A stretch of 64,000 bases of DNA. Origin: Panopea generosa. Its lineage: Eukaryota; Mollusca; Bivalvia; Adapedonta; Hiatellidae. The notes under the pieces are model-generated. The model had not been told where the DNA came from and searched no databases. It saw only the letters and a list, made by a program, of their open reading frames with translations. The translations under genes and the position numbers were made by a program. Location of the stretch: contig CM055907.1 in the NCBI GenBank assembly GCA_029582155.1, positions 31,183,983 through 31,247,982 on the forward strand, read 5' to 3'. Shown here piece after piece: positions 10,635 to 64,000 of this stretch; position 1 is the first letter of the stretch; each line of letters starts with the position of its first letter.

Positions 10635-10669
10635 TATGAGACTAATCTGATTGTGTATTAAATCTCCGT

Positions 10670-21705: not shown

Positions 21706-21772
21706 AAAGATATTTTTGGGAGATTCACTTGTAGTAGGAAACGAGTTGGAAAAATCTCCCAAAAATATCTTT
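21706..21772. repeat. Perfect 20-bp inverted repeat at the satellite edge
   Basis: The left arm 21706-21725 and the right arm 21753-21772 are exact reverse complements over 20 bases, with a 27-base loop. The arms contain GATATTTTTGGGAGAT and ATCTCCCAAAAATATC. Satellite sequence begins at the right arm's last bases (TTTTATTTTTTGTGTTGAT). The loop carries AGTAGGAAACGAGTT, which resembles the start of the minisatellite at 20.5 kb. Confidence 0.9.
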
Positions 21773-21802
21773 TATTTTTTGTGTTGATTATAATTTGGAA
21801 AA

Positions 21803-24800
21803 GTGCAATACATTTTTGTTCGCTCTGTCGCTCTATACTCATTAAGCAATCGTGTTTGTTTAATGCCATTTAATACAAACGAATAATCCATTTTGATTTT
21901 ATTCATATGAATTACATTTTCCACACGATTAATACATTTTGAGCTTGTTCTTTACAGTATATAGCTACAGAGATAGGTTTGTTCCACTTAATGTATTACG
22001 AATACATTATTATGATGCTTATACAGCGATTGAGATTGATTTGTTTCACTTAATACATACGAATATTACATTGGGTGTTCTGGTATTGCTGTTCTGTTTG
22101 GTATACATGTACAGAGACTTATTTGTGCCAATTAATACACACGAATATTACATTTTGAGATTTTTTTCAGAACAAAGCTATAGAGACTGATTTGTTCCAA
22201 TGAATACAAAGAACATTTTGAGTATTTTTCTTTTCATAGTTCTGCTATAGAAATTGATTTGTTCCACTTAATTCACGCCATTATTTCATTTTGAATTCAT
22301 TCAACTAAATTCATAGCAATATTATATTTTGTATTGTTCTATTTAGTATACATCTTATACACATTGATTAGTTCCACTGAATGCATGCGAATATGATATT
22401 AATATATTTTCTTTTATTGACCCTGAGAGCACCGCAGTATTACATTTTGTACTTTTTTTTCTACTGCAAAACTGTTTGATTAATACTAATTAATGCAAGG
22501 ACATTTTATTTTTTGTGTTGATTATAATTTGAAAACAGTGCAATATAATTGTATTTGCTCTATCTCTCTCTACTAATTAAGCAATAGTGTTTCATTAATG
22601 CCATTTAATGCAAACGAATTATCCATTATGATTTTATCAAAATGAATTACATTTTCCACACGAATATTACATTTTAAGCTTGTTCTATACAGTATACACT
22701 ACAGAGATATGTTTGTTCCACTTAATTCATACGAATATAACATTATGAGGTTTTAATTTTTTTTCAGTATACAGCAATCTAGATTGATTTATTTCACTTA
22801 ATTACATACGAATATTACATTTTGAGCTTGTTCTATACAGTATACGCTACATAGATATGTTTGTTCCACTTAATTCATACGAATATAACATTATGAGGTT
22901 TTATTTTTTTTTCAGTATACAGCAATCTAGATTGATTTATTTCACTTAATTACATACGAATATTACATTTTGAGCTTGTTCTATACAGTATACACTACAG
23001 AGATATGTTTGTTCCACTTAATTCATACGAATATAACATTATGAGGTTTTTATTTTTTTTCCAGTATACAGCAATCTAGATTGATTTATTTCACTTAATT
23101 ACATACGAATATTACATTTTGAGCTTGTTCTATACAGTATACGCTACATAGATATGTGTGTTCCACATAATTCATACGAATATAACATAATGAGGTTTTA
23201 TTTTTTTCAGTATACAGCGATAGAGATTTATTTCTTTCACTTAATTACATACGAATATTACATTTATAGGTGTTATTTTCTATTTAGTATACAGATTCAT
23301 TTGTTTCCATTAATACACACGAATTAGGAGTTTGTTCTATTCAGATTACTGCTGAATAGATTGATTTGTTCTACTTATTACCCACGAATATCGGATTGCG
23401 AGCTGGTTCTATTCAGTTTACAGCTACAGAGATTGGTTTATTCCACTTAATACACGCGATTCGATTATTTGATTTTCAACTAAATTCACAGCAATAATAT
23501 ATTTTTTGTTGTTCTCCACAGTACACATCCATGCAAATTGATTAGTTCCAGTTAATGCATGCGAATTATTATATTTTGTTTTATTTCAGCCTTAGATCAC
23601 CTCCAAATTACATTTTTTATTTTTTCCTACTTCAAAACTATTTGATTAGTTCTACTTAATGCAAGGAAATATTATTTATTTTGTTGATTATCATTTAAAA
23701 ACAGTGCAATATATTTTTGTTTTCTCTATCGCCTCTATTCTAATTAAGCAATAGTGTTTGTTTAATGCCATTTGATACAAACGAATAATCCATTTTGCTG
23801 GTATTAAAATGAATTACATTTTCCACACGTTTTTTTACATTTTGAGCTTGTTATAGCTACAGAGATTGGATTGTTCCACTTAATACATACGAATACAATA
23901 TTATGAGGTTTTATTCTTTTCAGTATCAAGCGATTGATATTCATTTGATTCACTTAATACATACGAATATTACATTGACTGTTTGTTCTACTTGGTATAC
24001 AGGTGTAGATATTTATTTGTAACAATTAATACACACGAATATCACATTTACATTTTTTTTTCTATTAAGTATACAGCTATACAGATTTATTTGTTTCCCT
24101 TAATACACACGAATAAAGTGTTTGTTCTATTAAGTTTACAACTAAAGAGATTTATTTGTTTACTTAATATACACAAATATTACATTTTGAGTGTGTTCTA
24201 TGCAGTATGCAGCTACAGAGATTGATTTCTTCTACTTAATACACACGAATATTACATTTTGTTTTTATTTTTTGTTTGTTCTATTAAGTAAACATCTATA
24301 CAGATTGAGAAGTTCCCTTTAATACACGCAATTTTTTTCATTTTTTATTCATTCAACTTAATCAACAGCACAGCAATATTACATTTTGTGTTCTATTTAG
24401 CATACATCTATACAAATTGATTAGTTCCACTTTATGCAGGCGAATATTACATTTTGATCATTACTTTTCATCATAGGGCTATAGCGATTTATTTGTTCCC
24501 CTTAATACACACGAATATGACATTTTGTGTTTGTTATATTAAGTATACATCTATACACGCGATATTTTCATTTTGTAGTCATTAACCTAAATAAACAGCA
24601 ATATTTTAGTTTTTGTTGTTCATTTTAGTATACATCTATACAAATTGATTAGTTCCACTTAATGCATGCAATTATGACATAGCATTATTATATTTTGTTT
24701 TATTTAAGCTAACATCACCGCGATATTACATTTTGAGGTTTTTTTTTCTATTTAGTATACAGATTCATTTGTTTCCCTTAATACACACGAATTAGGTTTT

Positions 24801-27800
24801 TGTTCTATACAGTTTACAGCTATATAGATTTATTTGTTCTACTTAATACACACGAATATTACATTTTGAGTTTGTTCTATTCAGTTTACAGCTATAGAGA
24901 TTGATTTCTTCAGCTGGTTCTATTCAGTATACAGCTACAGAGATTGTTTTTCCCACTTACTACACGCGATGCGATTATTTGATTTTCAATTAAATTCATA
25001 ACAACATTATATTTTTGTTGTTCTATTTAGTATACATCTATACAAACTGATTAGTTCCACTTAATGCATGCGAATATGACATAGCATTATTACATTTTGT
25101 TTCATTTAAGCTGAGATCACCGCAATATTACTTTTTTTTTCTACTGCAAAACTGTTTGATTAATACTACTTAATGCAAGGACATTTTATTTTTTGTGTTG
25201 ATTAAAATTTGAAAAAAAAACAGTGCAATATATTTTTGTTTGCTCTATCTCTCTATACTAATTAAGCAATAGTATTTGTTTAATGCCATTTAATACAAAT
25301 GAATAATCCAATATGATTTTATCAAAATGAATTACATTTTCCACACGATTAATACATTTTAAACTTGTTCTGTTCAGTATACAGCTACAGAGATTTTTTT
25401 CCCACTTAATACAGCGATTTATTTGTTCCCCTTAATACACACGAATATGACATTTTGTGTTTGTTATATTAAGTATACATCTATACACGCGATATTTTCA
25501 TTTTGTTGTCATTAACCTAAATAAAAAGCAATAGTTTAGTTTTTGTTGTTCATTTTAGTATACATCTATACAAATTGATTAGTTCCACTTAATGCATGCA
25601 ATTATGACATAGCATTATTATATTTTGTTTTATTTAAACTAACATCACCGCGATATTACATTTTGAGTGTTTTTTTTCTATTTAGTATACAGATTCATTT
25701 GTTTCCCTTAATACACACGAATTAGGTTTTTGTTCTATACAGATAACAGCTATATAGATTTATTTGTTCTACTTAATACACACGAATATTACATTTTGAG
25801 TTTGTTCTATTCAGTTTACAGATATAGAGATTGATTTCTTCAGCTGGTTCTATTCAGTATACAGCTACAGAGATTGTTTTTCCCACTTACTACACGCGAT
25901 GCGATTATTTGATTTTCAATTAAATTCATAACAACATTATATTTTTGTTGTTCTATTTAGTATACATCTATACAAACTGATTAGTTCCACTTAATGCATG
26001 CGAATATGACATAGCATTATTACATTTTGTTTCATTTAAGCTGAGATAACCGCAATATAACTCTTTTTTTTTCTACTGCAAAACTGTTTGATTAATACTA
26101 CTTAATGCAAGGACGTTTTATTTTTTGTGTTGATTAAAATTTGAAAAAATAAAACAGTGCAATATAATTTTGTTTGCTCTATCTCTCTATATTAATTAAG
26201 CAATAGTGTTTGTTTAATGCTATTTATACACGAATAATCAATTTAAATTTTTATTCAAATGAATTACATTTTCCACACGAATATTACATTTTGAGCTTGT
26301 TCTATACAGTATACACTACAGAGATATGTTTGTTCCACTTAATTCATACGAATATAACATTATGAGGTTTTATTTTTTTTTCAGTATACAGCGATAGAGA
26401 TTTATTTCTTTCACTTAATTACATACGAATATTACATTTATAGGTGTTATTTTCTATTTAGTATACAGATTCATTTGTTTCCATTAATACACACGAATTA
26501 GGAGTTTGTTCTATTCAGATTACTGCTGAATAGATTGATTTGTTCTACTTATTACCCACGAATATCGGATTGCGAGCTGGTTCTATTCAGTTTACAGCTA
26601 CAGAGATTGGTTTATTCCACTTAATACACGCGATTCGATTATTTGATTTTCAACTAAATTCACAGCAATAATATATTTTTTGTTGTTCTCCACAGTACAC
26701 ATCTATGCAAATTGATTAGTTCCAGTTAATGCATGCGAATTATTATATTTTGTTTTATTTCAGCCTTAGATCACCTCCAAATTACATTTTTTATTTTTTC
26801 CTACTTCAAAACTATTTGATTAGTTCTACTTAATGCAAGGAAATATTATTTATTTTGTTGATTATCATTTAAAAACAGTGCAATATATTTTTGTTTTCTC
26901 TATCGCCTCTATTCTAATTAAGCAATAGTGTTTGTTTAATGCCATTTGATACAAACGAATAATCCATTTTGCTGGTATTAAAATGAATTACATTTTCCAC
27001 ACGTTTTTTTACATTTTGAGCTTGTTATAGCTACAGAGATTGGATTGTTCCACTTAATACATACGAATACAATATTATGAGGTTTTATTCTTTTCAGTAT
27101 CAAGCGATTGATATTCATTTGATTCACTTAATACATACGAATATTACATTGACTGTTTGTTCTACTTGGTATACAGGTGTAGATATTTATTTGTAACAAT
27201 TAATACACACGAATATCACATTTACATTTTTTTTTCTATTAAGTATACAGCTATACAGATTTATTTGTTTCCCTTAATACACACGAATAAAGTGTTTGTT
27301 CTATTAAGTTTACAACTAAAGAGATTTATTTGTTTACTTAATATACACAAATATTACATTTTGAGTGTGTTCTATGCAGTATGCAGCTACAGAGATTGAT
27401 TTCTTCTACTTAATACACACGAATATTACATTTTGTTTTTATTTTTTGTTTGTTCTATTAAGTAAACATCTCTACAGATTGAGAAGTTCCCTTTAATACA
27501 CGCAATTTTTTTCATTTTTTATTCATTCAACTTAATCAACAGCACAGCAATATTACATTTTGTGTTCTATTTAGCATACATCTATACAAATTGATTAGTT
27601 CCACTTTATGCAGGCGAATATTACATTTTGATCATTACTTTTCATCATAGGGCTATAGCGATTTATTTGTTCCCCTTAATACACACGAATATGACATTTT
27701 GTGTTTGTTATATTAAGTATACATCTATACACGCGATATTTTCATTTTGTAGTCATTAACCTAAATAAACAGCAATATTTTAGTTTTTGTTGTTCATTTT

Positions 27801-30157
27801 AGTATACATCTATACAAATTGATTAGTTCCACTTAATGCATGCAATTATGACATAGCATTATTATATTTTGTTTTATTTAAGCTAACATCACCGCGATAT
27901 TACATTTTGATGGTTTTTTTTCTATTTAGTATACAGATTCATTTGTTTCCCTTAATACACACGAATTAGGTTTTTGTTCTATACAGTTTACAGCTATATA
28001 GATTTATTTGTTCTACTTAATACACACGAATATTACATTTTGAGTTTGTTCTATTCAGTTTACAGCTATAGAGATTGATTTCTTCAGCAGGTTCTATTCA
28101 GTATACAGCTACAGAGATTGTTTTTCCCACTTAATACACGCGATGCGATTATTTGATTTTCAATTAAATTCATAACAACATTATATTTTTGTTGTTCTAT
28201 TTAGTATACATCTATACAAACTGATTAGTTCCACTTAATGCATGCGAATATGACATAGCACTATTACATTTTGTTTCATTTAAACTGAGATAACCGCAAT
28301 ATAACTCTTTTTTTTTCTACTGCAAAACTGTTTGATTAATACTACTTAATGCAAGGACGTTTTATTTTTTGTGTTGATTAAAATTTGAAAAAAAAAACAG
28401 TGCAATATAATTTTGTTTGCTCTATCTCTCTATATTAATTAAGCAATAGTATTTGTTTAATGCCATTTAATACAAACGAATAATCCATTATGATTTTATC
28501 AAAATGAATTACATTTTCCACACGATTATTACATTTTAAACTTGTTCTATTCAGTATACAGCTACAGAGATTTTTTTTCACCACTTAATACACGCGATGC
28601 GATTATTTGATTTTTAACTAAATTCACAACAATATTATATTTTTCGTTGTTCTATTTAGTATACATCAATACAAATTGATTAGTTCCAATTTTTTGTTTC
28701 ATTTAAGCTCAGATAATCGCAATATAACATTATTTTTTCTATTGCAAAACTGTTTGATTAATTCTACTTAATACAAGGACATTTTATTTTTTGTGTTGAT
28801 TATAATTTGGAAGAGTGCAATATATTTTTATTTGCTCTACCTCTCTATACTAATTAAGCAATAGTATTTGTTTAATGCCATTTAATACAAATGAATAATC
28901 CATTATGATTTTATCAAAATGAATTACATTTTCCACACGATTAATACATTTTAAACTTGTTCTATTCAGTATACAGCTACAGAGATTTTTTTCCCACTTA
29001 ATACAGCGATTTATTTGTTCCCCTTAATACACACGAATATGACATTTTGTGTTTGTTATATTAAGTATACATCTATACACGCGATATTTTCATTTTGTAG
29101 TCATTAACCTAAATAAACAGCAATATTTTAGTTTTTGTTGTTCATTTTAGTATACATCTATACAAATTGATTAGTTCCACTTAATGCATGCAATTATGAC
29201 ATAGCATTATTATATTTTGTTTTATTTAAGCTAACATCACCGCGATATTACATTTTGAGTTTTTTTTTTCTATTTAGTATACAGATTCATTTGTTTCCCT
29301 TAATACACACGAATTAGGTTTTTGTTCTATACAGTTTACAGCTATATAGATTTATTTGTTCTACTTAATACACACGAATATTACATTTTGAGTTTGTTCT
29401 ATTCAGTTTACAGCTATAGAGATTGATTTCTTCAGCTGGTTCTATTCAGTATACAGCTACAGAGATTGTTTTTCCCACTTAATACACGCGATGCGATTAT
29501 TTGATTTTCAATTTAATTCATAACAACATTATATTTTTGTTGTTCTATTTAGTATACATCTATACAAATTGATTAGTTCCACTTAATGCGTGCGAATATG
29601 ACATAGCATTATTACATTTTGTTTCATTTAAGCTGAGATAACCGCAATATAACTTTTTTTTTCTACTGCAAAACTGTTTGATTAATACTACTTGATGCAA
29701 GGACGTTTTATTTTTTGTGTTGATTAAAATTTGAAAAAAAAACAGTGCAATATAATTGTGTTTGCTCTATCTCTCTATACTAATTAAGCAATAGTATTTG
29801 TTTAATGCCATTTAATACAAACGAATAATCCATTATGATTTTATCAAAATGAATTACATTTTCCACACGATTAATATATTTTAAACTTCTTCTATTCAGT
29901 ATACAGCTACAGAGATTTTTTTCCCACTTAATACACGCGATGAGATTATTTGATTTTTAACTAAATTCACAACAATATTATATTTTTCGTTGTTCTATTT
30001 AGTATACATCTATACAAATTGATTAGTTCCAATTTTTTGTTTCATTTAAGCTCAGATAATCGCAATACAACATTAATTTTTCTATTGCAAAACTGTTTGA
30101 TTAATTCTACTTAATAAAAGGACATTTTATTTTTTGTGTTGATTATAATTTGGAAAA
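21803..30157 (+). repeat. Satellite HOR copy, 8,355-bp variant (leftmost)
   Basis: The copy is bounded by the anchor GTGCAATA of the linker with the TCGCTCTATACTCATTAAG form. It opens with the block that all other copies share (TTCTTTACAGTATATAGCT near 21945). Inside are a segment of about 2.2 kb duplicated at an offset of 3,174 bp (23,211 to about 25,405 against 26,385 to about 28,580) and a segment near 24,486-25,290 duplicated again at about 25,424. Confidence 0.75.
22674..23270 (+). repeat. Local fourfold expansion of a 149-bp monomer dimer
   Basis: A two-monomer unit starting AGCTTGTTCTATACAGTATA begins near 22674, 22823, 22972 and 23121, an exact 149-bp step. The corresponding places in later HOR copies (for example about 40,520-40,810) hold fewer dimers, so this is a local tandem gain. 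Confidence 0.8.
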
Positions 30158-33100
30158 GTGCAATATATTTTTGTTTGCTCTGTCGCTCTATACTCATTAA
30201 GCAATAGTGTTTGTTTAATGCCATTTAATACAAACGAATAATCCATTTTGATTTTATTCATATGAATTACATTTTCCACACGATTAATACATTTTGAGCT
30301 TGTTCTTTACAGTATATAGCTACAGAGATAGGTTTGTTCCACTTAATGTATTACGAATACATTATTATGATGCTTATACAGCCATTGAGATTGATTTGTT
30401 TCACTTAATACATACGAATATTACATTGGGTGTTCTGGTATTGCTGTTCTGTTTGGTATACATGTACAGAGATTTATTTGTGCCAATTATACACACGAAT
30501 ATTACATTTTGGGATTTTTTTCAGAACAGAGCTATAGAGACTGATTTGTTCCAATGAATACAAAGAACATTTTGAGTATTTTTCTTTTCATAGTTCTGCT
30601 ATAGAAATTGATTTGTTCCACTTAATACACGCCATTATTTCATTTTGAATTCATTCAACTAAATTCACAGCAATATTATATTTTGTATTGTTCTATTTAG
30701 TATACATCTTATACACATTGATTAGTTCCACTGAATGCATGCGAATATGATATTATTATATTTTCTTTTATTGAACCTGAGAGCTCCGCAGTATTACATT
30801 TTGTACTTTTTTTCTACTGCAAAACTGTTTGATTAATACTAATTAATGCAATGACATTTTATTTTGTGTGTTGATTATAATTTGAAAACAGTACAATATA
30901 ATTTTATTTGCTCTATCTCTCTCTACTAATTAAGCAATAGTGTTTCATTAATGCCATTTAATACAAACGAATAATCCATTATGATTTTATCAAAATGAAT
31001 TACATTTTCCACACGATTATTACATTTTAAACGTGTTCTATACAGTATACAGCTACAGAGATAGGCTTGTTCCACTGAATACATACGAATATAGCATTAT
31101 GAGGTTTTATTCTTTTCAGTATATAGCGATAGATATTCATTTATTTCACTTAATAGATATGAATATTACATTTGACGTTTTTTTCTATACAGCTATACAC
31201 ATTCATTTGTTTCCCTTAATTCATACGAATTAGGTGTTTGTTCTATTCATTTGACATCTGAACAAAATTATTTGTTCTACTTAATACACACGAATATTAC
31301 ATTTTGTGTTCATTTTGTTTTTATTCTATTAAGTATACTGCTAAACAGGTTGCTTAGTTCCATTTAATACACGCGATTATTTCATTTTGTATTCATAAAC
31401 CTTATTAAACAGCACAGAAATATTATATTTTGTGTTGTTTTGTTTAGTATACATATTGATTAGTTCCACTTAATACAGGCGAATATTACATAGCATTATA
31501 ACATATGCTTTTATTTAAGATAAGAGCACCGCAATATTACATTTTGAATTTGTTTCTATTCATTATAGAGCATAACAGTTTGATTAGTTCTACTTAATAC
31601 AATGACATATTATTTGTTGTGTTGATTATAATTTGTAAACAGTTCAATATTTTTTGTTTCCTCTATAGCTCTAAATGCTAATTAATCAATAGTGTTTGTT
31701 TAATGCTATTTATACACGAATAATCCATTTTAATTTTTATTCAAATGAATCACATTTTCCACACAAATATTACATTTTGAGATTGTTCTATACAGTATAC
31801 ACTACAGAGATATGTTTGTTCCACTTAATTCATACGAATATAACATTATGAGGTTTTATTTTTCTTTCAGTATACAGCAATCTAGATTGATTTATTTCAC
31901 TTAATTACATACGAATATTACATTTTGAGCTTGTTCTATACAGTATACGCTACATAGATATGTTTGTTCCACATAATTCATACGAATATAACATAATGAG
32001 GTTTTATTTTTTTCAGTATACAGCGAAAGAGATTTATTTCTTTCACTTAATTACATACGAATATTACATTTATAGTGTTATTTTCTATTTAGTATACAGA
32101 TTCATTTGTTTCCATTAATACACACGAATTAGGAGTTTGTTCTATTCAGATTACTGCTGAATAGATTGATTTGTTCTACTTATTACCCACGAATATCGGA
32201 TTGCGAGCTGGTTCTATTCAGTTTACAGCTACAGAGATTGGTTTATTCCACTTAATACACGCGATTCGATTATTTGATTTTCAACTAAATTCACAGCAAT
32301 AATATATTTTTTGTTGTTCTCCATAGTACACATCTATGCAAATTGATTAGTTCCAGTTAATGCATGCGAATTATTATATTTTGTTTTATTTCAGCCTAGA
32401 TCACCTCAATATAACATTTTCTATTTTTTCCTACTTCAAAACTATTTGATTAGTTCTACTTAAATGCAAGGAAATATTTTTTTTTTTGTTGATTATCATT
32501 TGAAAACAGTGCAATATATTTTTGTTTTCTCTATCGCCTCTATACTAATTAAGCAATAGTGTTTGTTTAATGCCATTTGATACAAACGAATAATCCATTA
32601 GTTTGCTTGTATTAAAATGAATTACATTTTCCACACGTTTTTTACATTTTGAGCTTGTTATAAGCTACAGAGATTGGATTGTTCCACTTAATACATACGA
32701 ATACAATATTATGAGGTTTTATTCTTTTCAGTATAAAGCGATTGATATTCATTTGATTCTCTTAATACATATGAATATTACATTTGACGTTTTTTTCTAT
32801 ACAGCTATACACATTCATTTGTTTCCCTTAATTCATACGAATTAGGTGTTTGTTCTATTCATTTGACATCTGAACAAAATTATTTGTTCTGCTTAATACA
32901 CACGAATATTACATTTTGTGTTCATTTTGTTTTTATTCTATTAAGTATACTGCTAAACAGGTTGCTTAGTTCCATTTAATACACGCGATTATTTCATTTT
33001 GTATTCATAAACCTTATTAAACAGCACAGAAATATTATATTTTGTGTTGTTTTGTTTAGTATACATATTGATTAGTTTCACTTAATACAGGCGAATATTA

Positions 33101-34379
33101 CATAGCATTATAACATATGCTTTTATTTAAGATAATAGCACCGCAATATTACATTTTGAATTTGTTTTTCTATTCATTATAGAGCATAACAGTTTGATTA
33201 GTTCTACTTAATACAATGACATATTATATGTTGTGTTGATTATAATTTGTAAACAGTTCAATATTTTTTGTTTCCTCTATAGCTCTAAATGCTAATTAAT
33301 CAATAGTGTTTGTTTAATGCTATTTATACACGAATAATCCATTTTAATTTTTATTCAAATGAATTACATTTTCCACACGAATATTACATTTTGAGCTTGT
33401 TCTATACAGTATACACTACAGAGATATGTTTGTTCCACTTAATTCATACGAATATAACATTATGAGGTTTTTTTGTTTTTTTTTCAGTATACAGCAATCT
33501 AGATTGATTTATTTCACTTAATTACATACGAATATTACATTTTGAGCTTGTTCTATACAGTATACGCTACATAGATATGTTTGTTCCACATAATTCATAC
33601 GAATATAACATAATGAGGTTTTATTTTTTTCAGTATACAGCGGTAGAGATTTATTTCTTTCACTTAATTACATACGAATATTACATTTATAGTGTTATTT
33701 TCTATTTAGTATACAGATTCATTTGTTTCCATTAATACACACGAATTAGGAGTTTGTTCTATTCAGATTACTGCTGAATAGATTGATTTGTTCTACTTAT
33801 TACCCACGAATATCGGATTGCGAGCTGGTTCTATTCAGTTTACAGCTACAGAGATTGGTTTATTCCACTTAATACACGCGATTCGATTATTTGATTTTCA
33901 ACTAAATTCACAGCAATAATATATTTTTTGTTGTTCTCCATAGTACACATCTATGCAAATTGATTAGTTCCAGTTAATGCATGCGAATTATTATATTTTG
34001 TTTTATTTCAGCCTAGATCACCTCAATATAACATTTTCTATTTTTTCCTACTTCAAAACTATTTTATTAGTTCTACTTAATGCAAGGAAATATTTTTTTT
34101 TTGTTGATTATCATTTGAAAACAGTGCAATATATTTTTGTTTTCTCTATCGCCTCTATACTAATTAAGCAATAGTGTTTGTTTAATGCCATTTGATACAA
34201 ACGAATAATCAATTTTGCTTGTATTAAAATGAATTACATTTTCCACACGTTTTTTACATTTTGAGCTTGTTATAGCTACAGAGATTGGATTGTTCCACTT
34301 AATACATACGAATACAACATTATGAGGTTTTATTCTTTTCAGTATAAAGCGATTGATATTCATTTGATTCACTTAATAC

Positions 34380-34388
34380 ATACGAATA
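34380..34388 (+). repeat. Target-site duplication, left copy
   Basis: ATACGAATA here is repeated exactly at 34550-34558, bracketing the insertion. Empty paralogous sites carry a single copy, for example in the ACATACGAATATTACATTG context near 41,485. Confidence 0.85.
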
Positions 34389-34549: not shown

Positions 34550-34558
34550 ATACGAATA
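34550..34558 (+). repeat. Target-site duplication, right copy
   Basis: This is an exact match to ATACGAATA at 34380-34388; satellite monomer sequence resumes immediately afterwards. Confidence 0.85.
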
Positions 34559-50163: not shown

Positions 50164-53100
50164 GTGCAATATATTTTTGTTCGCTCTGTCGCTCTATACT
50201 CATTAAGCAATAGTGTTTGTTTAATGCCATTTAATACAAACGAATAATCCATTTTGATTTTATTCATATGAATTACATTTTCCACACGATTAATACATAT
50301 TGAGCTTGTTCTTTACAGTATATAGCTACAGAGATAGGTTTGTTCCACTTAATGTATTACGAATACATTATCATGATGCTTATACAGCGATTGAGATTGA
50401 TTTGTTTCACTTAATACATACGAATATTACATTGGGTGTTCTGGTATTGCTGTTCTGTTTGGTATACATGTACAGAGACTTATTTGTGCCAATTAATACA
50501 CACGAATATTACATTTTGAGATTTTCTTTCAGAACAGAGCTATAGAGACTGATTTGTTCCAATGAATACAAAGAACATTTTGAGTATTTTTCTTTTCATA
50601 GTTCTGCTATAGAAATTGATTTGTTCCACTTAATACACGCCATTATTTCACTTTGAATTCATTCAACTAAATTCACAGCAATATTATATTTTGTATTGTT
50701 CCATTTAGTATACATCTTATACACATTGATTAGTTCCACTGAATGCATGCGAATATGATATTATTATATTTTCTTTTATTGTACCTGAGAGCTCCGCAGT
50801 ATTACATTTTGTACTTTTTTTCTACTGCGAAACTGTTTGATTAATACTAATTAATGCAAGGACATTTTATTTTTTGTGTTGATTATAATTTGAAAACAGT
50901 GCAATATGATTTTATTTGCTCTATCTCTCTCTACTAATTAAGCAATAGTGTTTCATTAATGCCATTTAATACAAACGAATAATCCATTATGATTTTATCA
51001 AAATGAATTACATTTTCCAAACGATTATTACATTTTAAACGTGTTCTATACAGTATACAGCTACAGAGATAGGCTTGTTCCACTGAATACATACGAATAT
51101 AGCATTATGAGATTTTATTCTTTTCAGTATATAGCGATAGATATTCATTTGTTTCACTTAATACATATGAATATTACATTTGACGTTTTTTTCTATACAG
51201 CTATACACATTCATTTGTTTCCCTTAATTCATACGAATTAGGTGTTTGTTCTATTCATTTGACATCTGAACAAAATTATTTGTTCTACTTAATACACACG
51301 AATATTACATTTTGTGTTCATTTTGATTTTATTCTATTAAGTATACTGCTAAACAGGTTGCTTAGTTCCATTTAATACACGCGATTATTTCATTTTGTAT
51401 TCATAAACCTTATTAAACAGCACAGCAATATTATATTTTGTGTTGTTTTGTTTAGTATACATATTGATTAGTTCCACTTAATACAGGCGAATATTACATA
51501 GCATTATAACATATGCTTTTATTTAAGATAAGAGCACCGCAATATTACATTTTGAATTTGTTTCTATTCATTATAGAGCATAACAGTTTGATTAATTCTA
51601 CTGAATACAATGACATATTATTTGTTGTGTTGATTATAATTTGTAAACAGTTCAATATCTTTTGTTTCCTCTATAGCTCTATATGCTAATTAATCAATAG
51701 TGTTTGTTTAATGCTATTTATACACGAATAATCAATTTAAATTTTTATTCAAATGAATTACATTTTCCACACGAATATTACATTTTGAGCTTGTTCTATA
51801 CAGTATACACTACAGAGATATGTTTGTTCCACTTAATTCATACGAATATAACATTATGAGGTTTCATTTTTGTTTCAGTATACAGCAATCTAGATTGATT
51901 TATTTCACTTAATTACATACGAATATTACATTTTGAGCTTGTTCTATACAGTATACGCTACATAGATATGTTTGTTCCACATAATTCATACGAATATAAC
52001 ATAATGAGGTTTTATTTTTTTCAGTATACAGCGAAAGAGATTTATTTCTTTCACTTAATTACATACGAATATTACATTTATAGGTGTTATTTTCTATTTA
52101 GTATACTAGTATACAGATTCATTGTTCTATTCAGATTAATGCTGAATAGATTGATTTGTTCTACTTATTACCCACGAATATCGGATTGCGAGCTGGTTCT
52201 ATTCAGTTTACAGCTACAGAGATTGGTTTATTCCACTTAATACACGCGATTCGATTATTTGATTTTCAACTAAATTCACAGCCATAATATATTTTTTGTT
52301 GTTCTCCATAGTACACATCTATGCAAATTGATTAGTTCCAGTTAATGCATGCGAATTATTATATTTTGTTTTATTTCAGCCTAGATCACCACAATATAAC
52401 ATTTTCTATTTTTTCCTACTTCAAAACTATTTTATTAGTTCTACTTAATGCAAGGAAATATTATTTTTTTTGTTGATTATCATTTGAAAACAGTGCAATA
52501 TATTTTTGTTTTCTCTATCGCCTCTATACTAATTAAGCAATAGTGTTTGTTTAATGCCATTTGATACAAACGAATAATCCATTTTGCTTGTATTAAAATG
52601 AATTACATTTTCCACACGTTTTTTACATTTTGAGCTTGTTATAGCTACAGAGATTGGATTGTTCCACTTAATACATACGAATACAACATTATGAGGTTTT
52701 ATTCTTTTCAGTATAAAGCGATTGATATTCATTTGATTCACTTAATACATACGAATATTACATTGATTGTTTGTTCTATTTGGTATACAGGTGTAGATAT
52801 TTATTTGTAACAATTAATACAAACGAATATCACATTTAGATTTTTTTTCTATTAAGTATACAGCTATACAGATTTATTTGTTTCCCTTAATACACACGAA
52901 TAAGGTGTTTGTTTTATTAAGTTTACAGCTAAAGAGATTTATTTGTTTACTTAATACACACAAATATTACATTTTGAGTGTGTTCTATGCAGTATGCAGC
53001 TACAGAGATTGATTTCTTCTACTTAATACACACGAATATTACATTTTGTTTTTATTTTTTGTTTGTTCTATTAAGTAAACATCTATACAGATTCAGAAAT

Positions 53101-56100
53101 TCCATTTAATACACGCGATTTTTTTCATTTTTTATTCATTCAACTTAATCAACAGCACAGCAATATTACTTTTTCTATTCTATTTAGCATACATCTATAC
53201 AATTTGATTAGTTCCACTTTATGCAGGCGAATATTACATTTTGATCATTACTTTTCATCATAGGGCTATAGCGATTGATTTGTTCCCCTTAATACACACG
53301 AATATGACATTTTGTGTTTGTTATATTAAGTATACATCTATACACGCGATATTTTCATTTTGTAGTCATTAACCTAAATAAACAGCAATATTTTAGTTTT
53401 TGTTGTTCATTTTAGTATACATCTATACAAATTGATTAGTTCCACTTAATGCATGCAATTATGACATAGCATTATTATATTTTGTTTTATTTAAGCTAAC
53501 ATCACCGGTATATTACATTTTGAGGTTTTTTTTCTTTTTAGTATACAGATTCATTTGTTTCCCTTAATACACACGAATTAGGTTTTTGTTCTATACAGTT
53601 TACAGCTATATAGATTTATTTGTTCTACTTAATACACACAAATATTACATTTTGAGTTTGTTCTATTCAGTTTACAGCTATAGAGATTGATTTCTTCAGC
53701 TGGTTCTATTCAGTATACAGCTACAGAGATTTTTTTTCCACTTAATACAGCGATTTATTTGTTCCCCTTAATACACACGAATATGACATTTTGTGTTTGT
53801 TATATTAAGTATACATCTATACACGCGATATTTTCATTTTGTAGTCATTAACCTAAATAAACAGCAATATTTTAGTTTTTGTTGTTCATTTTAGTATACA
53901 TCTATACAAATTGATTAATTCCACTTAATGCATGAAATTATGACATAGCATTATTATATTTTGTTTTATTTAAGCTAACATCACCGGTATATTACATTTT
54001 GAGGGTTTTTTTTCTTTTTAGTATACAGATTCATTTGTTTCCCTTAATACACACGAATTAGGTTTTTGTTCTATACAGTTTACAGCTATATAGATTTATT
54101 TGTTCTACTTAATACACACAAATATTACATTTTGAGTTTGTTCTATTCAGTTTACAGCTATAGAGATTGATTTCTTCAGCTGGTTCTATTCAGTATACAG
54201 CTACAGAGATTGTTTTTCCGACTTAATACACGCGATGCGATTATTTGATTTTCAATTAAATTCATAACAACATTATATTTTTGTTGTTCTATTTAGTATA
54301 CATCTATACAAACTGATTAGTTCCACTTAATGCATGCGAATATGACATAGCATTATTACATTTTGTTTCATTTAAGCTGAGATAACCGCAATATAACTCT
54401 TTTTTTTCTACTGCAAAACTGTTTGATTAATACTACTTAATGCAAGGACGTTTTATTTTTTGTGTTGATTAAAATTTGAAAAAAAAAACCAGTGCAATAT
54501 AATTTTGTTTGCTCTATCTCTCTTTTCAGTATACAGCAATATAGATTGATTTATTTCACTTAATTACATACGAATATTACATTTTGAGCTTGTTCTATAC
54601 AGTATACGCTACATAGATATGTTTGTTCCACATAATTCATACGAATATAACATAGTGAGGTTTTATTTTTTTCAGTATACAGCGATAGAGATTTATTTCT
54701 TTCACTTAATTACATACGAATATTACATTTATAGTGTTATTTTCTATTTAGTATACAGATTCATTTGTTTCCATTAATACACACGAATTAGGAGTTTGTT
54801 CTATTCAGATTACTGCTGAATAGATTGATTTGTTCTACTTATTACCCACGAATATCGGATTGCGAGCTGGTTCTATTCAGTTTACAGCTACAGAGATTGG
54901 TTTATTCCACTTAATACACGCGATTCGATTATTTGATTTTCAACTAAATTCACAGCAATAATATATTTTTTGTTGTTCTCCATAGTACACATCTATGCAA
55001 ATTGATTAGTTCCAGTTAATGCATGCGAATTATTATATTTTGTTTTATTTCAGCCTAGATCACCACAATATAACATTTTCTATTTTTTCCTACTTCAAAA
55101 CTATTTGATTAGTTCTACTTAAATGCAAGGAAATATTTATTTTTTTTGTTGATTATCATTTGAAAACAGTGCAATATATTTTTGTTTTCTCTATCGCCTC
55201 TATACTAATTAAGCAATAGTGTTTGTTTAATGCCATTTGATACAAACGAATAATCCATTAGTTTGCTTGTATTAAAATGAATTACATTTTCCACACGTTT
55301 TTTACATTTTGAGCTTGTTATAGCTACAGAGATTGGATTGTTCCACTTAATACATACGAATACAATATTATGAGGTTTTATTCTTTTCAGTATAAAGCGA
55401 TTGATATTCATTTGATTCACTTAATACATACGAATATTACATTGACTGTTTGTTCTATTTGGTATACAGGTTTAGATATTTATTTGTAACAATTAATACA
55501 AACGAATATCACATTTAGATTTTTTTTCTATTAAGTATACAGCTATACAGATTTATTTGTTTCCCTTAATACAAACGAATAAGGTGTTTGTTCTATTAAG
55601 TTGACAGCTAAAGAGATTATAATACACACAAATATTACATTTTGAGTGTGTTCTATGCAGTATGCAGCTACAGAGATTGATTTCTTCTACTTAATACACA
55701 CGAATATTACATTTTGTTTTTATTTTTTGTTTGTTCTATTAAGTAAACATCTATACAGATTCAGAAATTCCATTTAATACACGCGATTTTTTTCATTTTT
55801 TTATTCATTCAACTTAATCAACAGCACAGCAATATTACATTTTGTGTTCTATTTAGCATACATCTATACAAATTGATTAGTTCCACTTTATGCAGGCGAA
55901 TATTACATTTTGATCATTACTTTTCATCATAGAGCTATAGCGATTGATTTGTTCCCCTTAATACACACGAATATGACATTTTGTGTTTGTTATATTAAGT
56001 ATACATCTATACACGCGATATTTTCATTTTGTAGTCATTAACCTAAATAAACAGCAATATTTTAGTCTTTGTTGTTCATTTTAGTATACAACTATACAAA

Positions 56101-57095
56101 TTGATTAGTTCCACTTAATGCATGCAATTATGACATAGCATTATTATATTTTGTTTTATTTAAACTAACTTCACCGCGATATTACATTTTGATTTTTTTT
56201 TTCTATTTAGTATACAGATTCATTTGTTTCCCTTAATACACACGAATTAGGTTTTTGTTCTATACAGATTACAGCTATATAGATTTATTTGTTCTACTAA
56301 ATACACACGAATATTACATTTTGAGTTTGTTCTATTCAGTTTACAGCTATAGAGATTGATTTCTTCAGCTGGTTCTATTCTGTATACAGCTACAGAGATT
56401 GTTTTTCCCACTTAATACACGCGATGCGATCATTTGATTTTCAATTAAATTCATAACAACATTATATTTTTGTTGTTCTATTTAGTATACATCTATACAA
56501 ACTGATTAGTTCCACTTAATGCATGCGAATATGACATAGCATTATTACATTTTGTTTCATTTAAGCTGAGATAACCGCAATATAACTCTTTTTTTTCTAC
56601 TGCAAAACTGTTTGATTAATACTACTTAATGCAAGGACGTTTTATTTTTTGTGTTGATTAAAATTTAAAAAAAAACAACAGTGCAATATAATTTTGTTTG
56701 CTCTATCTCTCTATATTAATTAAGCAATAGTATTTGTTTAATGCCATTTAATACAAATGAATAATCCATTATGATTTTATCAAAATGAATTACATTTTCC
56801 ACACGATTATTACATTTTAAACTTCTTCTATTCAGTATACAGCTACAGAGATTTTTTTTCACCACTTAATACACGCGATGCGATTATTTAATTTTTAACT
56901 AAATTCACAACAATATTATATTTTTCGTTGTTCTATTTAGTATACATCTATACAAATTGATTAGTTCCAATTTTTTGTTTCATTTAAGCTCAGATAATCG
57001 CAATATAACATTAATTTTTCTTTTGCAAAACTGTTTGATTAATTCTACTTAATACAAGGACATTTTATTTTTTGTGTTGATTATAATTTGGAAAA
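50164..57095 (+). repeat. Satellite HOR copy, 6,932-bp variant
   Basis: This is the standard copy plus about 2.2 kb. After the long interval it has a truncated linker joined to TTTTCAGTATACAGCAATAT (about 54,515-54,545), then a second set of late blocks, so the minus-strand-like marker block occurs twice (about 52,529 and 55,205). The same join is present at about 35,840. Confidence 0.85.
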
Positions 57096-60000
57096 GTGCA
57101 ATATATTTTTGTTCGCTCTGTCGCTCTATACTCATTAAGCAATAGTGTTTGTTTAATGCCATTTAATACAAACGAATAATCCATTTTGATTTTATTCATA
57201 TGAATTACATTTTCCACACGATTAATACATATTGAGCTTGTTCTTTACAGTATATAGCTACAGAGATAGGTTTGTTCCACTTAATGTATTACGAATACAT
57301 TATCATGATGCTTATACAGCGATTGAGATTGATTTGTTTCACTTAATACATACGAATATTACATTGGGTGTTCTGGTATTGCTGTTCTGTTTGGTATACA
57401 TGTACAGAGACTTATTTGTGCCAATTAATACACACGAATATTACATTTTGAGATTTTCTTTCAGAACAGAGCTATAGAGACTGATTTGTTCCAATGAATA
57501 CAAAGAACATTTTGAGTATTTTTCTTTTCATAGTTCTGCTATAGAAATTGATTTGTTCCACTTAATACACGCCATTATTTCACTTTGAATTCATTCAACT
57601 AAATTCACAGCAATATTATATTTTGTATTGTTCCATTTAGTATACATCTTATACACATTGATTAGTTCCACTGAATGCATGCGAATATGATATTATTATA
57701 TTTTCTTTTATTGTACCTGAGAGCTCCGCAGTATTACATTTTGTACTTTTTTTCTACTGCGAAACTGTTTGATTAATACTAATTAATGCAAGGACATTTT
57801 ATTTTTTGTGTTGATTATAATTTGAAAACAGTGCAATATGATTTTATTTGCTCTATCTCTCTCTACTAATTAAGCAATAGTGTTTCATTAATGCCATTTA
57901 ATACAAACGAATAATCCATTATGATTTTATCAAAATGAATTACATTTTCCAAACGATTATTACATTTTAAACGTGTTCTATACAGTATACAGCTACAGAG
58001 ATAGGCTTGTTCCACTGAATACATACGAATATAGCATTATGAGATTTTATTCTTTTCAGTATATAGCGATAGATATTCATTTGTTTCACTTAATACATAT
58101 GAATATTACATTTGACGTTTTTTTCTATACAGCTATACACATTCATTTGTTTCCCTTAATTCATACGAATTAGGTGTTTGTTCTATTCATTTGACATCTG
58201 AACAAAATTATTTGTTCTACTTAATACACACGAATATTACATTTTGTGTTCATTTTGATTTTATTCTATTAAGTATACTGCTAAACAGGTTGCTTAGTTC
58301 CATTTAATACACGCGATTATTTCATTTTGTATTCATAAACCTTATTAAACAGCACAGCAATATTATATTTTGTGTTGTTTTGTTTAGTATACATATTGAT
58401 TAGTTCCACTTAATACAGGCGAATATTACATAGCATTATAACATATGCTTTTATTTAAGATAAGAGCACCGCAATATTACATTTTGAATTTGTTTCTATT
58501 CATTATAGAGCATAACAGTTTGATTAATTCTACTGAATACAATGACATATTATTTGTTGTGTTGATTATAATTTGTAAACAGTTCAATATCTTTTGTTTC
58601 CTCTATAGCTCTATATGCTAATTAATCAATAGTGTTTGTTTAATGCTATTTATACACGAATAATCAATTTAAATTTTTATTCAAATGAATTACATTTTCC
58701 ACACGAATATTACATTTTGAGCTTGTTCTATACAGTATACACTACAGAGATATGTTTGTTCCACTTAATTCATACGAATATAACATTATGAGGTTTCATT
58801 TTTGTTTCAGTATACAGCAATCTAGATTGATTTATTTCACTTAATTACATACGAATATTACATTTTGAGCTTGTTCTATACAGTATACGCTACATAGATA
58901 TGTTTGTTCCACATAATTCATACGAATATAACATAATGAGGTTTTATTTTTTTCAGTATACAGCGAAAGAGATTTATTTCTTTCACTTAATTACATACGA
59001 ATATTACATTTATAGGTGTTATTTTCTATTTAGTATACTAGTATACAGATTCATTGTTCTATTCAGATTAATGCTGAATAGATTGATTTGTTCTACTTAT
59101 TACCCACGAATATCGGATTGCGAGCTGGTTCTATTCAGTTTACAGCTACAGAGATTGGTTTATTCCACTTAATACACGCGATTCGATTATTTGATTTTCA
59201 ACTAAATTCACAGCCATAATATATTTTTTGTTGTTCTCCATAGTACACATCTATGCAAATTGATTAGTTCCAGTTAATGCATGCGAATTATTATATTTTG
59301 TTTTATTTCAGCCTAGATCACCACAATATAACATTTTCTATTTTTTCCTACTTCAAAACTATTTTATTAGTTCTACTTAATGCAAGGAAATATTATTTTT
59401 TTTGTTGATTATCATTTGAAAACAGTGCAATATATTTTTGTTTTCTCTATCGCCTCTATACTAATTAAGCAATAGTGTTTGTTTAATGCCATTTGATACA
59501 AACGAATAATCCATTTTGCTTGTATTAAAATGAATTACATTTTCCACACGTTTTTTACATTTTGAGCTTGTTATAGCTACAGAGATTGGATTGTTCCACT
59601 TAATACATACGAATACAACATTATGAGGTTTTATTCTTTTCAGTATAAAGCGATTGATATTCATTTGATTCACTTAATACATACGAATATTACATTGATT
59701 GTTTGTTCTATTTGGTATACAGGTGTAGATATTTATTTGTAACAATTAATACAAACGAATATCACATTTAGATTTTTTTTCTATTAAGTATACAGCTATA
59801 CAGATTTATTTGTTTCCCTTAATACACACGAATAAGGTGTTTGTTTTATTAAGTTTACAGCTAAAGAGATTTATTTGTTTACTTAATACACACAAATATT
59901 ACATTTTGAGTGTGTTCTATGCAGTATGCAGCTACAGAGATTGATTTCTTCTACTTAATACACACGAATATTACATTTTGTTTTTATTTTTTGTTTGTTC

Positions 60001-61838
60001 TATTAAGTAAACATCTATACAGATTCAGAAATTCCATTTAATACACGCGATTTTTTTCATTTTTTATTCATTCAACTTAATCAACAGCACAGCAATATTA
60101 CTTTTTCTATTCTATTTAGCATACATCTATACAATTTGATTAGTTCCACTTTATGCAGGCGAATATTACATTTTGATCATTACTTTTCATCATAGGGCTA
60201 TAGCGATTGATTTGTTCCCCTTAATACACACGAATATGACATTTTGTGTTTGTTATATTAAGTATACATCTATACACGCGATATTTTCATTTTGTAGTCA
60301 TTAACCTAAATAAACAGCAATATTTTAGTTTTTGTTGTTCATTTTAGTATACATCTATACAAATTGATTAGTTCCACTTAATGCATGCAATTATGACATA
60401 GCATTATTATATTTTGTTTTATTTAAGCTAACATCACCGGTATATTACATTTTGAGGTTTTTTTTTTCTTTTTAGTATACAGATTCATTTGTTTCCCTTA
60501 ATACACACGAATTAGGTTTTTGTTCTATACAGTTTACAGCTATATAGATTTATTTGTTCTACTTAATACACACAAATATTACATTTTGAGTTTGTTCTAT
60601 TCAGTTTACAGCTATAGAGATTGATTTCTTCAGCTGGTTCTATTCAGTATACAGCTACAGAGATTTTTTTTCCACTTAATACAGCGATTTATTTGTTCCC
60701 CTTAATACACACGAATATGACATTTTGTGTTTGTTATATTAAGTATACATCTATACACGCGATATTTTCATTTTGTAGTCATTAACCTAAATAAACAGCA
60801 ATATTTTAGTCTTTGTTGTTCATTTTAGTATACAACTATACAAATTGATTAGTTCCACTTAATGCATGCAATTATGACATAGCATTATTATATTTTGTTT
60901 CATTTAAACTAACTTCACCGCGATATTACATTTTGATTTTTTTTTTCTATTTAGTATACAGATTCATTTGTTTCCCTTAATACACACGAATTAGGTTTTT
61001 GTTCTATACAGATTACAGCTATATAGATTTATTTGTTCTACTAATACACACGAATATTACATTTTGAGTTTGTTCTATTCAGTTTACAGCTATAGAGATT
61101 GATTTCTTCAGCTGGTTCTATTCTGTATACAGCTACAGAGATTGTTTTTCCCACTTAATACACGCGATGCGATCATTTGATTTTCAATTAAATTCATAAC
61201 AACATTATATTTTTGTTGTTCTATTTAGTATACATCTATACAAACTGATTAGTTCCACTTAATGCATGCGAATATGACATAGCATTATTACATTTTGTTT
61301 CATTTAAGCTGAGATAACCGCAATATAACTCTTTTTTTTCTACTGCAAAACTGTTTGATTAATACTACTTAATGCAAGGACGTTTTATTTTTTGTGTTGA
61401 TTAAAATTTAAAAAAAAACAACAGTGCAATATAATTTTGTTTGCTCTATCTCTCTATATTAATTAAGCAATAGTATTTGTTTAATGCCATTTAATACAAA
61501 TGAATAATCCATTATGATTTTATCAAAATGAATTACATTTTCCACACGATTATTACATTTTAAACTTCTTCTATTCAGTATACAGCTACAGAGATTTTTT
61601 TTCACCACTTAATACACGCGATGCGATTATTTAATTTTTAACTAAATTCACAACAATATTATATTTTTCGTTGTTCTATTTAGTATACATCTATACAAAT
61701 TGATTAGTTCCAATTTTTTGTTTCATTTAAGCTCAGATAATCGCAATATAACATTAATTTTTCTTTTGCAAAACTGTTTGATTAATTCTACTTAATACAA
61801 GGACATTTTATTTTTTGTGTTGATTATAATTTGGAAAA
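57096..61838 (+). repeat. Satellite HOR copy, 4,743 bp (standard length)
   Basis: It has the same block order as the copies at 38,897 and 45,427 and is nearly identical to the copy at 38,897 in the later blocks (for example ACAGGTGTAGATATT and the full AAAGAGATTTATTTGTTTAC). Confidence 0.87.
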
Positions 61839-64000
61839 GTGCAATATATTTTTGTTCGCTCTGTCGCTCTATACTCATTAAGCAATAGTGTTTGTTTAAT
61901 GCCATTTAATACAAACGAATAATCCATTTTGATTTTATTCATATGAATTACATTTTCCACACGATTAATACATATTGAGCTTGTTCTTTACAGTATATAG
62001 CTACAGAGATAGGTTTGTTCCACTTAATGTATTACGAATACATTATCATGATGCTTATACAGCGATTGAGATTGATTTGTTTCACTTAATACATACGAAT
62101 ATTACATTGGGTGTTCTGGTATTGCTGTTCTGTTTGGTATACATGTACAGAGACTTATTTGTGCCAATTAATACACACGAATATTACATTTTGAGATTTT
62201 CTTTCAGAACAGAGCTATAGAGACTGATTTGTTCCAATGAATACAAAGAACATTTTGAGTATTTTTCTTTTCATAGTTCTGCTATAGAAATTGATTTGTT
62301 CCACTTAATACACGCCATTATTTCACTTTGAATTCATTCAACTAAATTCACAGCAATATTATATTTTGTATTGTTCCATTTAGTATACATCTTATACACA
62401 TTGATTAGTTCCACTGAATGCATGCGAATATGATATTATTATATTTTCTTTTATTGTACCTGAGAGCTCCGCAGTATTACATTTTGTACTTTTTTTCTAC
62501 TGCGAAACTGTTTGATTAATACTAATTAATGCAAGGACATTTTATTTTTTGTGTTGATTATAATTTGAAAACAGTGCAATATGATTTTATTTGCTCTATC
62601 TCTCTCTACTAATTAAGCAATAGTGTTTCATTAATGCCATTTAATACAAACGAATAATCCATTATGATTTTATCAAAATGAATTACATTTTCCAAACGAT
62701 TATTACATTTTAAACGTGTTCTATACAGTATACAGCTACAGAGATAGGCTTGTTCCACTGAATACATACGAATATAGCATTATGAGATTTTATTCTTTTC
62801 AGTATATAGCGATAGATATTCATTTGTTTCACTTAATACATATGAATATTACATTTGACGTTTTTTTCTATACAGCTATACACATTCATTTGTTTCCCTT
62901 AATTCATACGAATTAGGTGTTTGTTCTATTCATTTGACATCTGAACAAAATTATTTGTTCTACTTAATACACACGAATATTACATTTTGTGTTCATTTTG
63001 ATTTTATTCTATTAAGTATACTGCTAAACAGGTTGCTTAGTTCCATTTAATACACGCGATTATTTCATTTTGTATTCATAAACCTTATTAAACAGCACAG
63101 CAATATTATATTTTGTGTTGTTTTGTTTAGTATACATATTGATTAGTTCCACTTAATACAGGCGAATATTACATAGCATTATAACATATGCTTTTATTTA
63201 AGATAAGAGCACCGCAATATTACATTTTGAATTTGTTTCTATTCATTATAGAGCATAACAGTTTGATTAATTCTACTGAATACAATGACATATTATTTGT
63301 TGTGTTGATTATAATTTGTAAACAGTTCAATATCTTTTGTTTCCTCTATAGCTCTATATGCTAATTAATCAATAGTGTTTGTTTAATGCTATTTATACAC
63401 GAATAATCAATTTAAATTTTTATTCAAATGAATTACATTTTCCACACGAATATTACATTTTGAGCTTGTTCTATACAGTATACACTACAGAGATATGTTT
63501 GTTCCACTTAATTCATACGAATATAACATTATGAGGTTTCATTTTTGTTTCAGTATACAGCAATCTAGATTGATTTATTTCACTTAATTACATACGAATA
63601 TTACATTTTGAGCTTGTTCTATACAGTATACGCTACATAGATATGTTTGTTCCACATAATTCATACGAATATAACATAATGAGGTTTTATTTTTTTCAGT
63701 ATACAGCGAAAGAGATTTATTTCTTTCACTTAATTACATACGAATATTACATTTATAGGTGTTATTTTCTATTTAGTATACTAGTATACAGATTCATTGT
63801 TCTATTCAGATTAATGCTGAATAGATTGATTTGTTCTACTTATTACCCACGAATATCGGATTGCGAGCTGGTTCTATTCAGTTTACAGCTACAGAGATTG
63901 GTTTATTCCACTTAATACACGCGATTCGATTATTTGATTTTCAACTAAATTCACAGCCATAATATATTTTTTGTTGTTCTCCATAGTACACATCTATGCA
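61839..64000 (+). repeat. Satellite HOR copy, cut by the window end
   Basis: The first 2,162 bp of another standard copy follow the same order of markers (GTATACTAGTATAC again near 63,776). The array therefore continues beyond the window. Confidence 0.85.

What the first reader, a model, noticed from the sequence alone, without database searches (positions are those of the whole stretch)
21771..64000. A three-level satellite: about 72-bp monomer, linker-bounded blocks, 4.74-kb HOR
Monomers with GTATAC and CGAATATTACATTT boxes are grouped by a 170-bp linker into blocks, and blocks into HORs of 8,355, 8,739, 4,745, 1,785, 4,737, 6,932 and 4,743 bp plus a partial copy. HORs with a separate spaced linker module are unusual outside centromeric satellites. 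The right-hand copies look nearly identical, implying recent homogenisation. The array could be a centromeric, pericentric or heterochromatic block; nothing in the sequence decides which.
Basis: partly seen in the sequence, partly recalled or inferred. Interest (0 to 1): 0.75.

Follow-up and report, generated by a model that had tools for sequence, protein, structure and literature searches.

The report
Geoduck centromere-like higher-order satellite array
This is a real, layered tandem-repeat array from the Pacific geoduck clam; the same repeat family was found at one place on each of eight chromosomes, mostly with a different repeat length on each, which is how centromere DNA often looks, but there are no centromere protein data to prove it.

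Summary
The array runs 22 kb past the window (about 64 kb in all). The host is the Pacific geoduck, Panopea generosa: the assembly length matches to the base. Genome searches place the ~72-bp family at one locus on each of 8 of 19 chromosomes, plus one lone monomer on a ninth (most lists capped at 100 rows). Seven arrays have their own dominant period. Arrays lie more centrally than random (P=0.007, a post-hoc test); being on eight different chromosomes is weak evidence alone (P=0.17). Monomer order is shared with 6 of 7 other arrays tested. The "linker" contains two decayed monomers around a better-conserved core. Best reading: centromeric satellite of eight chromosomes, alpha-satellite-like in architecture (confidence 0.5). 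Against: 11 chromosomes showed none, no exact CENP-B box and no dyad excess, no CENP-A data. Rivals: non-centromeric interstitial satellite, or retired centromeres.

The parts
21845..64000 (+). Satellite array (runs on to C14:31,270,213, 22 kb past the window)
   Evidence: Monomer HMM scan, 666 of 667 matches on + over the extended 104 kb; extent
21909..39002 (+).
   Evidence: Pieces mostly 94-98% to the reference HOR, overlapping matches 85-93%
39003..43747 (+). HOR copy, 4745 bp
   Evidence: 99.83% to reference
43748..45532 (+). Deleted HOR copy, 1785 bp
   Evidence: Matches reference positions 1-487 (99.6%) and 3479 to the end (99.7%)
45533..50269 (+). HOR copy, 4737 bp
   Evidence: 99.44% to reference
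50270..57201 (+). HOR copy with internal duplication, 6932 bp
   Evidence: 98.98% over 4322 bp, then reference 1604-3556 (95.1%) and 3479 to the end (99.7%) again
57202..61944 (+). HOR copy used as reference, 4743 bp; 51 monomer matches; linker spacings 426, 732, 752, 841 and 1992 bp recur in units of this kind
   Evidence: Linker spacing; monomer count
61945..64000 (+). HOR copy cut by the window end (4734 bp in the genome)
   Evidence: 99.50% to reference
22453..22662 (+). Example linker: two diverged monomers around a core, plus tail ending GAATTACATTTTCCACACG
   Evidence: 197.5 bits; make-up of the linker consensus

Best explanation
A low-abundance satellite family (at least about 0.53 Mb, 0.036% of the assembly) that marks the centromere or centromere-adjacent DNA of eight of the nineteen geoduck chromosomes. 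Shown: a ~72-bp monomer family, blocks bounded by a recurring composite linker, higher-order repeats whose length differs between chromosomes, one locus per chromosome. Inferred: CenH3 nucleosomes assemble on the homogenised core, perhaps two monomers (about 147 bp) per nucleosome; the linker core may be a protein-binding box analogous to, but not homologous with, the CENP-B box; unequal exchange in the array core repeatedly amplifies multi-kilobase units while the edges decay. The other eleven chromosomes would have centromeres on other or unassembled DNA.
For: One locus per chromosome on C4, C7, C9, C11, C14, C16, C18, C19: 94 of 94 linker-segment matches and all listed monomer matches (100 of 170, 100 of 162) fall in these loci, apart from one monomer on C5. 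Central positions: 0.33-0.66 of chromosome length for seven, 0.825 for C16; P=0.007 under uniform placement, a test chosen after seeing the data. Different dominant spacings: C14 4.74 kb; C18 about 3.50; C7 3.25/6.28 and C9 5.58/9.98; C11 4.05/5.72; C19 1.80/5.04 and C4 2.00/3.70. Monomers average 75% identity within and 73% between six sampled chromosomes while complete C14 units are 99% alike, the alpha-satellite pattern as described in PMC5615363 passages. Core homogenised, left part older. Monomer order shared with 6 of 7 arrays (5 shuffles as control). Two exon-like pieces of a divergent H3-like sequence on C18 fit, but do not prove, a CenH3 gene.
Against: Eleven of 19 chromosomes showed no array member at the sensitivity used. 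Eight loci on eight different chromosomes has P=0.17 by chance. No exact CENP-B core box (motif recalled) in the fetched stretches; with one mismatch 2, 1, 7, 3, 0, 1, 0 on C4, C5, C7, C16, C19, C14, C18. Dyad symmetries not above simulation and lower than in the flanks. Arrays are small (16-104 kb). C16 lies at 82% of its chromosome and has no dominant period. The histone-like pieces match ordinary H3 best. A minisatellite private to this locus also exists, so single-locus repeats are not unique to this family. No chromatin, FISH or Hi-C data.
Confidence: 0.5

Rival explanations
1. An interstitial, non-centromeric satellite: an old multi-monomer unit was copied to eight chromosomes by rare ectopic exchange or circle reinsertion, and each array then expanded locally by unequal crossing-over with no function.
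For: Shared monomer order; lone monomer on C5 with no other monomer match beyond one weak one in the 20 kb fetched; placement on different chromosomes not significant alone, P=0.17; strand switches inside the C4, C7, C16 and C19 arrays; a private minisatellite nearby.
Against: Central placement, P=0.007, post hoc; no second locus on any chromosome among listed matches; a dispersed repeat from the array's flank was by contrast found on 16 chromosomes in 40 scored of 861 candidates.
Confidence: 0.28
2. Retired or pericentric arrays: the family once carried centromeres or now lies in flanking heterochromatin, and kinetochores sit on other sequence nearby.
For: Only 8 of 19 chromosomes; small sizes; C7, C16 and C19 arrays broken by other sequence, including, by eye, an LTR-type element in C16 and a 3.1-kb inverted-repeat element co-amplified in C7.
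Against: Complete C14 units are nearly identical, so exchange continued until recently; C18 units recur regularly at about 3.50 kb.
Confidence: 0.17
3. Helitron-type mobile-element core repeats, as for many oyster satellites.
For: In Crassostrea gigas nine of the 11 most abundant satellites are dominantly mobile-element-associated (PMC8268682 abstract).
Against: Eight flanks of five sampled arrays share no border sequence; 4 flank-to-flank matches in all, the only long one being a dispersed repeat. No scattered copies among the listed genome matches.
Confidence: 0.03
4. Assembly artefact: collapse or chimeric expansion of repeats.
For: PacBio/Falcon assembly with 26.5-kb read N50; a 500-N gap inside the C19 array; a segment repeated about 56.7 kb apart in C11 (positions).
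Against: The C14 array has no N; the same monomer family is on eight chromosomes and monomer order agrees across most. Copy number may be wrong; the family itself is not an artefact.
Confidence: 0.02

Closest known systems
Primate alpha-satellite higher-order repeats
   Same: Monomers about 75% alike, complete units 99% alike, unit length differing by chromosome, homogenised core with older edge (description in PMC5615363 passages)
   Different: 72-bp not ~170-bp monomer; no exact CENP-B box found; arrays 16-104 kb; a composite linker punctuates the unit; no sequence relationship tested or claimed; centromere function untested
Cg170 and other CenH3-associated repeats of the oyster Crassostrea gigas
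   Same: Bivalve tandem repeat; Cg170 is centromeric on only 4-7 of 10 chromosome pairs, as this family is on 8 of 19 (PMC7348941 section 3.2 and Discussion read)
   Different: Cg170 is also scattered through the genome inside Helitrons; this family showed one locus per chromosome
Scallop Adamussium colbecki Ac4p1 satellite
   Same: Bivalve satellite with subrepeats, for which its authors invoke higher-order repeat units (PMC5874043 passages)
   Different: About 726-bp unit with a variable number of subrepeats; here units of kilobases with about 50 monomers and chromosome-dependent length
Beetle satellites with higher-order repeats
   Same: Higher-order units by joint amplification of neighbouring monomers (PMC5615363 passages)
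   Different: Usually dimeric; here about 50 monomers and a recurring linker

Membership tests
Higher-order-repeat satellite (alpha-satellite-like architecture) | Diverged monomers (70-90%) within the unit, more than 95% identity between units | tested here: met
   Monomers 75% mean within chromosomes; complete C14 units 99.1-99.8%; thresholds from PMC5615363 passages
Higher-order-repeat satellite (alpha-satellite-like architecture) | Chromosome-specific unit length | tested here: met
   Different dominant spacings on C14, C18, C7, C9, C11, C19, C4; C16 has none
Alpha-satellite proper | ~170-bp monomer, with CENP-B box (box recalled) | tested here: not met
   Monomer about 72 bp; no exact CENP-B core box
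Centromeric satellite | Main array on every chromosome | tested here: not met
   Found on 8 of 19 chromosomes; oyster centromeres are also not uniform, so this lowers but does not exclude
Centromeric satellite | Position at primary constriction | tested here: inconclusive
   Central positions, P=0.007, post hoc; no karyotype paper found
Centromeric satellite | CENP-A/CenH3 occupancy | not testable with these tools
   No ChIP data
Helitron-associated satellite (oyster type) | Conserved element ends flanking the repeats; many scattered short arrays | tested here: not met
   No shared border sequence among 8 flanks of 5 arrays; no scatter among listed matches

The most novel reading that the evidence does not exclude
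The first localised, chromosome-specific higher-order centromeric satellite in a bivalve: eight of nineteen centromeres run on one family whose composite linker carries a conserved core acting as a kinetochore-protein box, while the other eleven have switched to different DNA, giving a within-genome experiment on centromere turnover.
Probability: 0.3. Interest if true: 0.7.

Novelty: new member of a known kind. Interest (0 to 1): 0.5.

Why it matters
Bivalve centromeres are little characterised: the one bivalve CenH3 study that turned up in these searches (oyster, PMC7348941) found scattered, non-uniform repeats. A repeat restricted to one mostly central locus per chromosome gives ready FISH probes and ChIP targets in a clam, and the contrast between eight chromosomes with it and eleven without lets centromere turnover be tested inside one genome. 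The geoduck genome paper's main text has no occurrence of 'centromer' or 'satellite'.

Tried and rejected
Coding or RNA origin: no Rfam match in the window at gathering score; the longest stop-to-stop frame in the window's part of the array is 113 aa; 10 of 11 ORFs of at least 90 aa left of the array were scanned and none hit Pfam at E up to 0.001. CENP-B boxes (motif recalled) and dyad symmetries: no support. Shared pericentric flank: a 1.4-kb match between the right flanks of C14 and C16 turned out to be a dispersed repeat, found on 16 chromosomes. Linker as a more conserved module overall: identity over aligned letters favoured it (79.5% vs 73.4% between chromosomes), but with gaps counted the means are equal (0.587 vs 0.589) and only its core exceeds the best monomer window (0.766 vs 0.662); linkers were chosen with a C14-based model, so this leans towards C14-like copies, and C9 gave none that passed. 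Monomer order against C11 did not exceed shuffles (268 vs up to 278 bits, 2 kb sampled). AA/TT autocorrelation at 10 and 21-22 bp is weak (about 0.03), no stronger than many other lags; the peaks at 42, 72, 78, 120 and 147 bp probably reflect the repeat. Papers: none held joins Panopea with karyotype and metacentric; no geoduck satellite paper appeared among the rows listed (20 of 252; 25 of 842; 15 of 2,152; 5 of 5; 4 of 4; 15 of 20; 3 of 3).

Full report
WHERE IT IS. The window is G000:C14:31183983-31247982 of a genome of 1,474,161,289 bases in 39 contigs. The Pacific geoduck genome paper (PMC10729735; passages and abstract seen) reports the same total to the base, 39 scaffolds and 19 chromosomes, built from PacBio reads (N50 26.5 kb) with Falcon and Hi-C. 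I therefore take the host to be Panopea generosa and C1-C19 to be its chromosomes. The words 'centromer' and 'satellite' have no occurrence in that paper's main text.

THE OBSERVATION. BLAST of the 57202-61944 unit against the extended locus shows four other complete units of 4.73-4.75 kb at 99.1-99.8%, one deleted unit (1785 bp), one with an internal duplication (6932 bp), a rearranged left part (mostly 94-98%, with overlapping matches at 85-93%) and a 97.3% partial unit at the right edge. The array has 666 of 667 monomer matches on one strand, spans about 64 kb (C14:31205827-31270213) and is broken by one 3.1-kb insert beyond the window. Linkers recur at spacings of 426, 732, 752, 841 and 1992 bp, which add up to one unit; the reference unit has 51 monomer matches. 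G+C in the array is about 27% against 28-36% in the left flank.

MONOMER AND LINKER. The balanced model consensus is 71 bp, and consensus sequences of the sampled chromosomes differ little. The linker is about 180-215 bp. Scored with the monomer model, the linker consensus holds two decayed monomers (24.6 and 10.8 bits; the best of 500 shuffles reached 6.3) flanking a core with no significant match, and a short tail. With gaps counted, linker and monomer are equally conserved between chromosomes on average (0.587 and 0.589), but the best 33-bp linker window reaches 0.766 against 0.662 for the monomer (89 unique linkers from 7 chromosomes, 483 unique monomers from 8). A 33-base core pattern with up to three mismatches occurs 335 times in the genome with no control match; the 100 listed lie on C7, C9, C11, C14 and C19.

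WHOLE-GENOME DISTRIBUTION. Several patterns were run over the whole assembly; lists are capped at 100 rows. A 36-base linker segment (up to 3 mismatches) gave 94 matches, all listed, all inside one locus on each of C4, C7, C9, C14, C16, C18 and C19. An exact 18-base monomer core gave 170 matches; the 100 listed, in contig order up to C16, lie only on C4, C7, C9, C11, C14 and C16. A gapped pattern gave 162; the 100 listed, in contig order up to C18, lie on those plus C18 and one lone monomer on C5. The listed rows lie in the same loci; one search also has 137 unlisted rows, some of them chance (26 control matches). So C1-C3, C6, C8, C10, C12, C13, C15 and C17 show no member, and C5 only one monomer, at this sensitivity; more diverged members could be missed, and C20-C39 were fully covered only. 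Minimum extents are 16.0, 71.5, 85.7, 104.2, 64.4, 25.8, 80.4 and 86.4 kb for C4, C7, C9, C11, C14, C16, C18 and C19, 0.534 Mb in all (several taken from first and last listed matches and including interruptions).

ARE THE LOCI SPECIAL? As a contrast, a 1.4-kb dispersed repeat next to the array was found on 16 chromosomes among 40 scored of 861 candidates. Eight random loci would all fall on different chromosomes 17% of the time, so that alone says little; their central placement is less likely by chance (P=0.007; joint 0.001, with eight chromosome lengths interpolated for the weighting). I chose that test after seeing the positions. Seven arrays lie at 0.33-0.66 of their chromosomes and C16 at 0.825. 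Against uniqueness, a 41-bp minisatellite at the window's left end is private to this locus too (83 of 83 matches on C14).

ANCESTRY. Best alignments of the C14 unit with other arrays exceed five monomer-order shuffles for 6 of 7 chromosomes: 692 vs up to 366 bits (C4), 774 vs 389 (C7), 1112 vs 499 (C16), 605 vs 405 (C19), 469 vs 252 (C18), 435 vs 283 (C9), but 268 vs 278 (C11) (C9, C11 and C18 from 2-4 kb samples). Most arrays thus seem to descend from a shared multi-monomer unit and later grew different units: about 3.50 kb on C18, 3.25/6.28 on C7 and 5.58/9.98 on C9, 4.05/5.72 on C11, 1.80/5.04 on C19 and 2.00/3.70 on C4, with no dominant spacing on C16. On C7 the 6.28-kb unit is a 3.2-kb satellite block plus a 3.1-kb inverted-repeat element amplified with it.

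MECHANISM. Shown: layered amplification, recent homogenisation of the core, older left part, different units on different chromosomes. Inferred: centromere function. The closest architectural parallel is primate alpha-satellite (monomers 70-90% alike, units over 95%; PMC5615363 passages). Features that do not support it: absence from 11 chromosomes, no exact CENP-B box, no dyad excess. Oyster centromeres are also non-uniform between chromosomes (PMC7348941, section 3.2 and Discussion read), so absence from some chromosomes is not fatal. Two H3-like pieces on the minus strand of C18, 16 kb apart (C18:4477839-4477949 and 4461712-4461828), could be exons of a CenH3 gene: against ordinary H3 they show 8 differences in 35 and 8 in 38 aligned residues, yet ordinary H3 is still their best match in the PDB sequences, with a yeast-type CenH3 (cnp1) close behind for the second. 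That they belong to one gene is not shown, and the middle of the fold was not found.

VERDICT. Centromeric at 0.5; interstitial or retired satellite otherwise. By architecture it is a new member of a known kind. Higher-order units have been invoked for a scallop satellite (PMC5874043 passages); I saw no bivalve report of a satellite confined to one locus per chromosome with chromosome-dependent units among the listed rows, which search only open-licence papers and, for the large result sets, show only the top rows.

Noticed in passing
window 1-3061 (and C14:31170423-31171371, 31182967 on): 41-bp minisatellite with a 192-bp higher period, found only at this locus (83 of 83 pattern matches on C14).
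   Followed up: partly
window 3258-3890: 147-bp tandem repeat, 4.3 copies, 93% matches.
   Followed up: no
window 7125-11124: Broken frames that look by eye like LINE reverse transcriptase; no Pfam hit.
   Followed up: partly
window 18110-18344, 20535-20628, 21707-21771: 20-bp minisatellite twice; the motif GAGATTCACTT just before the second copy (20513) recurs at 21720, inside a perfect 19-bp-arm hairpin (21707-21725 / 21753-21771) at the array's left border.
   Followed up: partly
C5:65145268-65145327 (L018): A lone satellite monomer, the only member listed off the eight arrays.
   Followed up: partly
C7:26038080-26041174, 26044362-26047457, 26050644-26053619 (L020-L022): 3.1-kb element that matches its own reverse complement at about 92%, amplified together with the satellite unit, copies 99.5-99.9% identical.
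   Followed up: partly
C16:52996394-53001097 (L028): By eye an LTR-retrotransposon-like element with long open frames inside the C16 array; described as it stands, no family search run.
   Followed up: no
C18:4461712-4477949 (L040, L042): Two divergent H3-like pieces, possible CenH3 exons.
   Followed up: partly
C11:27838592 and 27895320 onward: Segment repeated about 56.7 kb apart inside the C11 array: real duplication or assembly artefact (positions).
   Followed up: no
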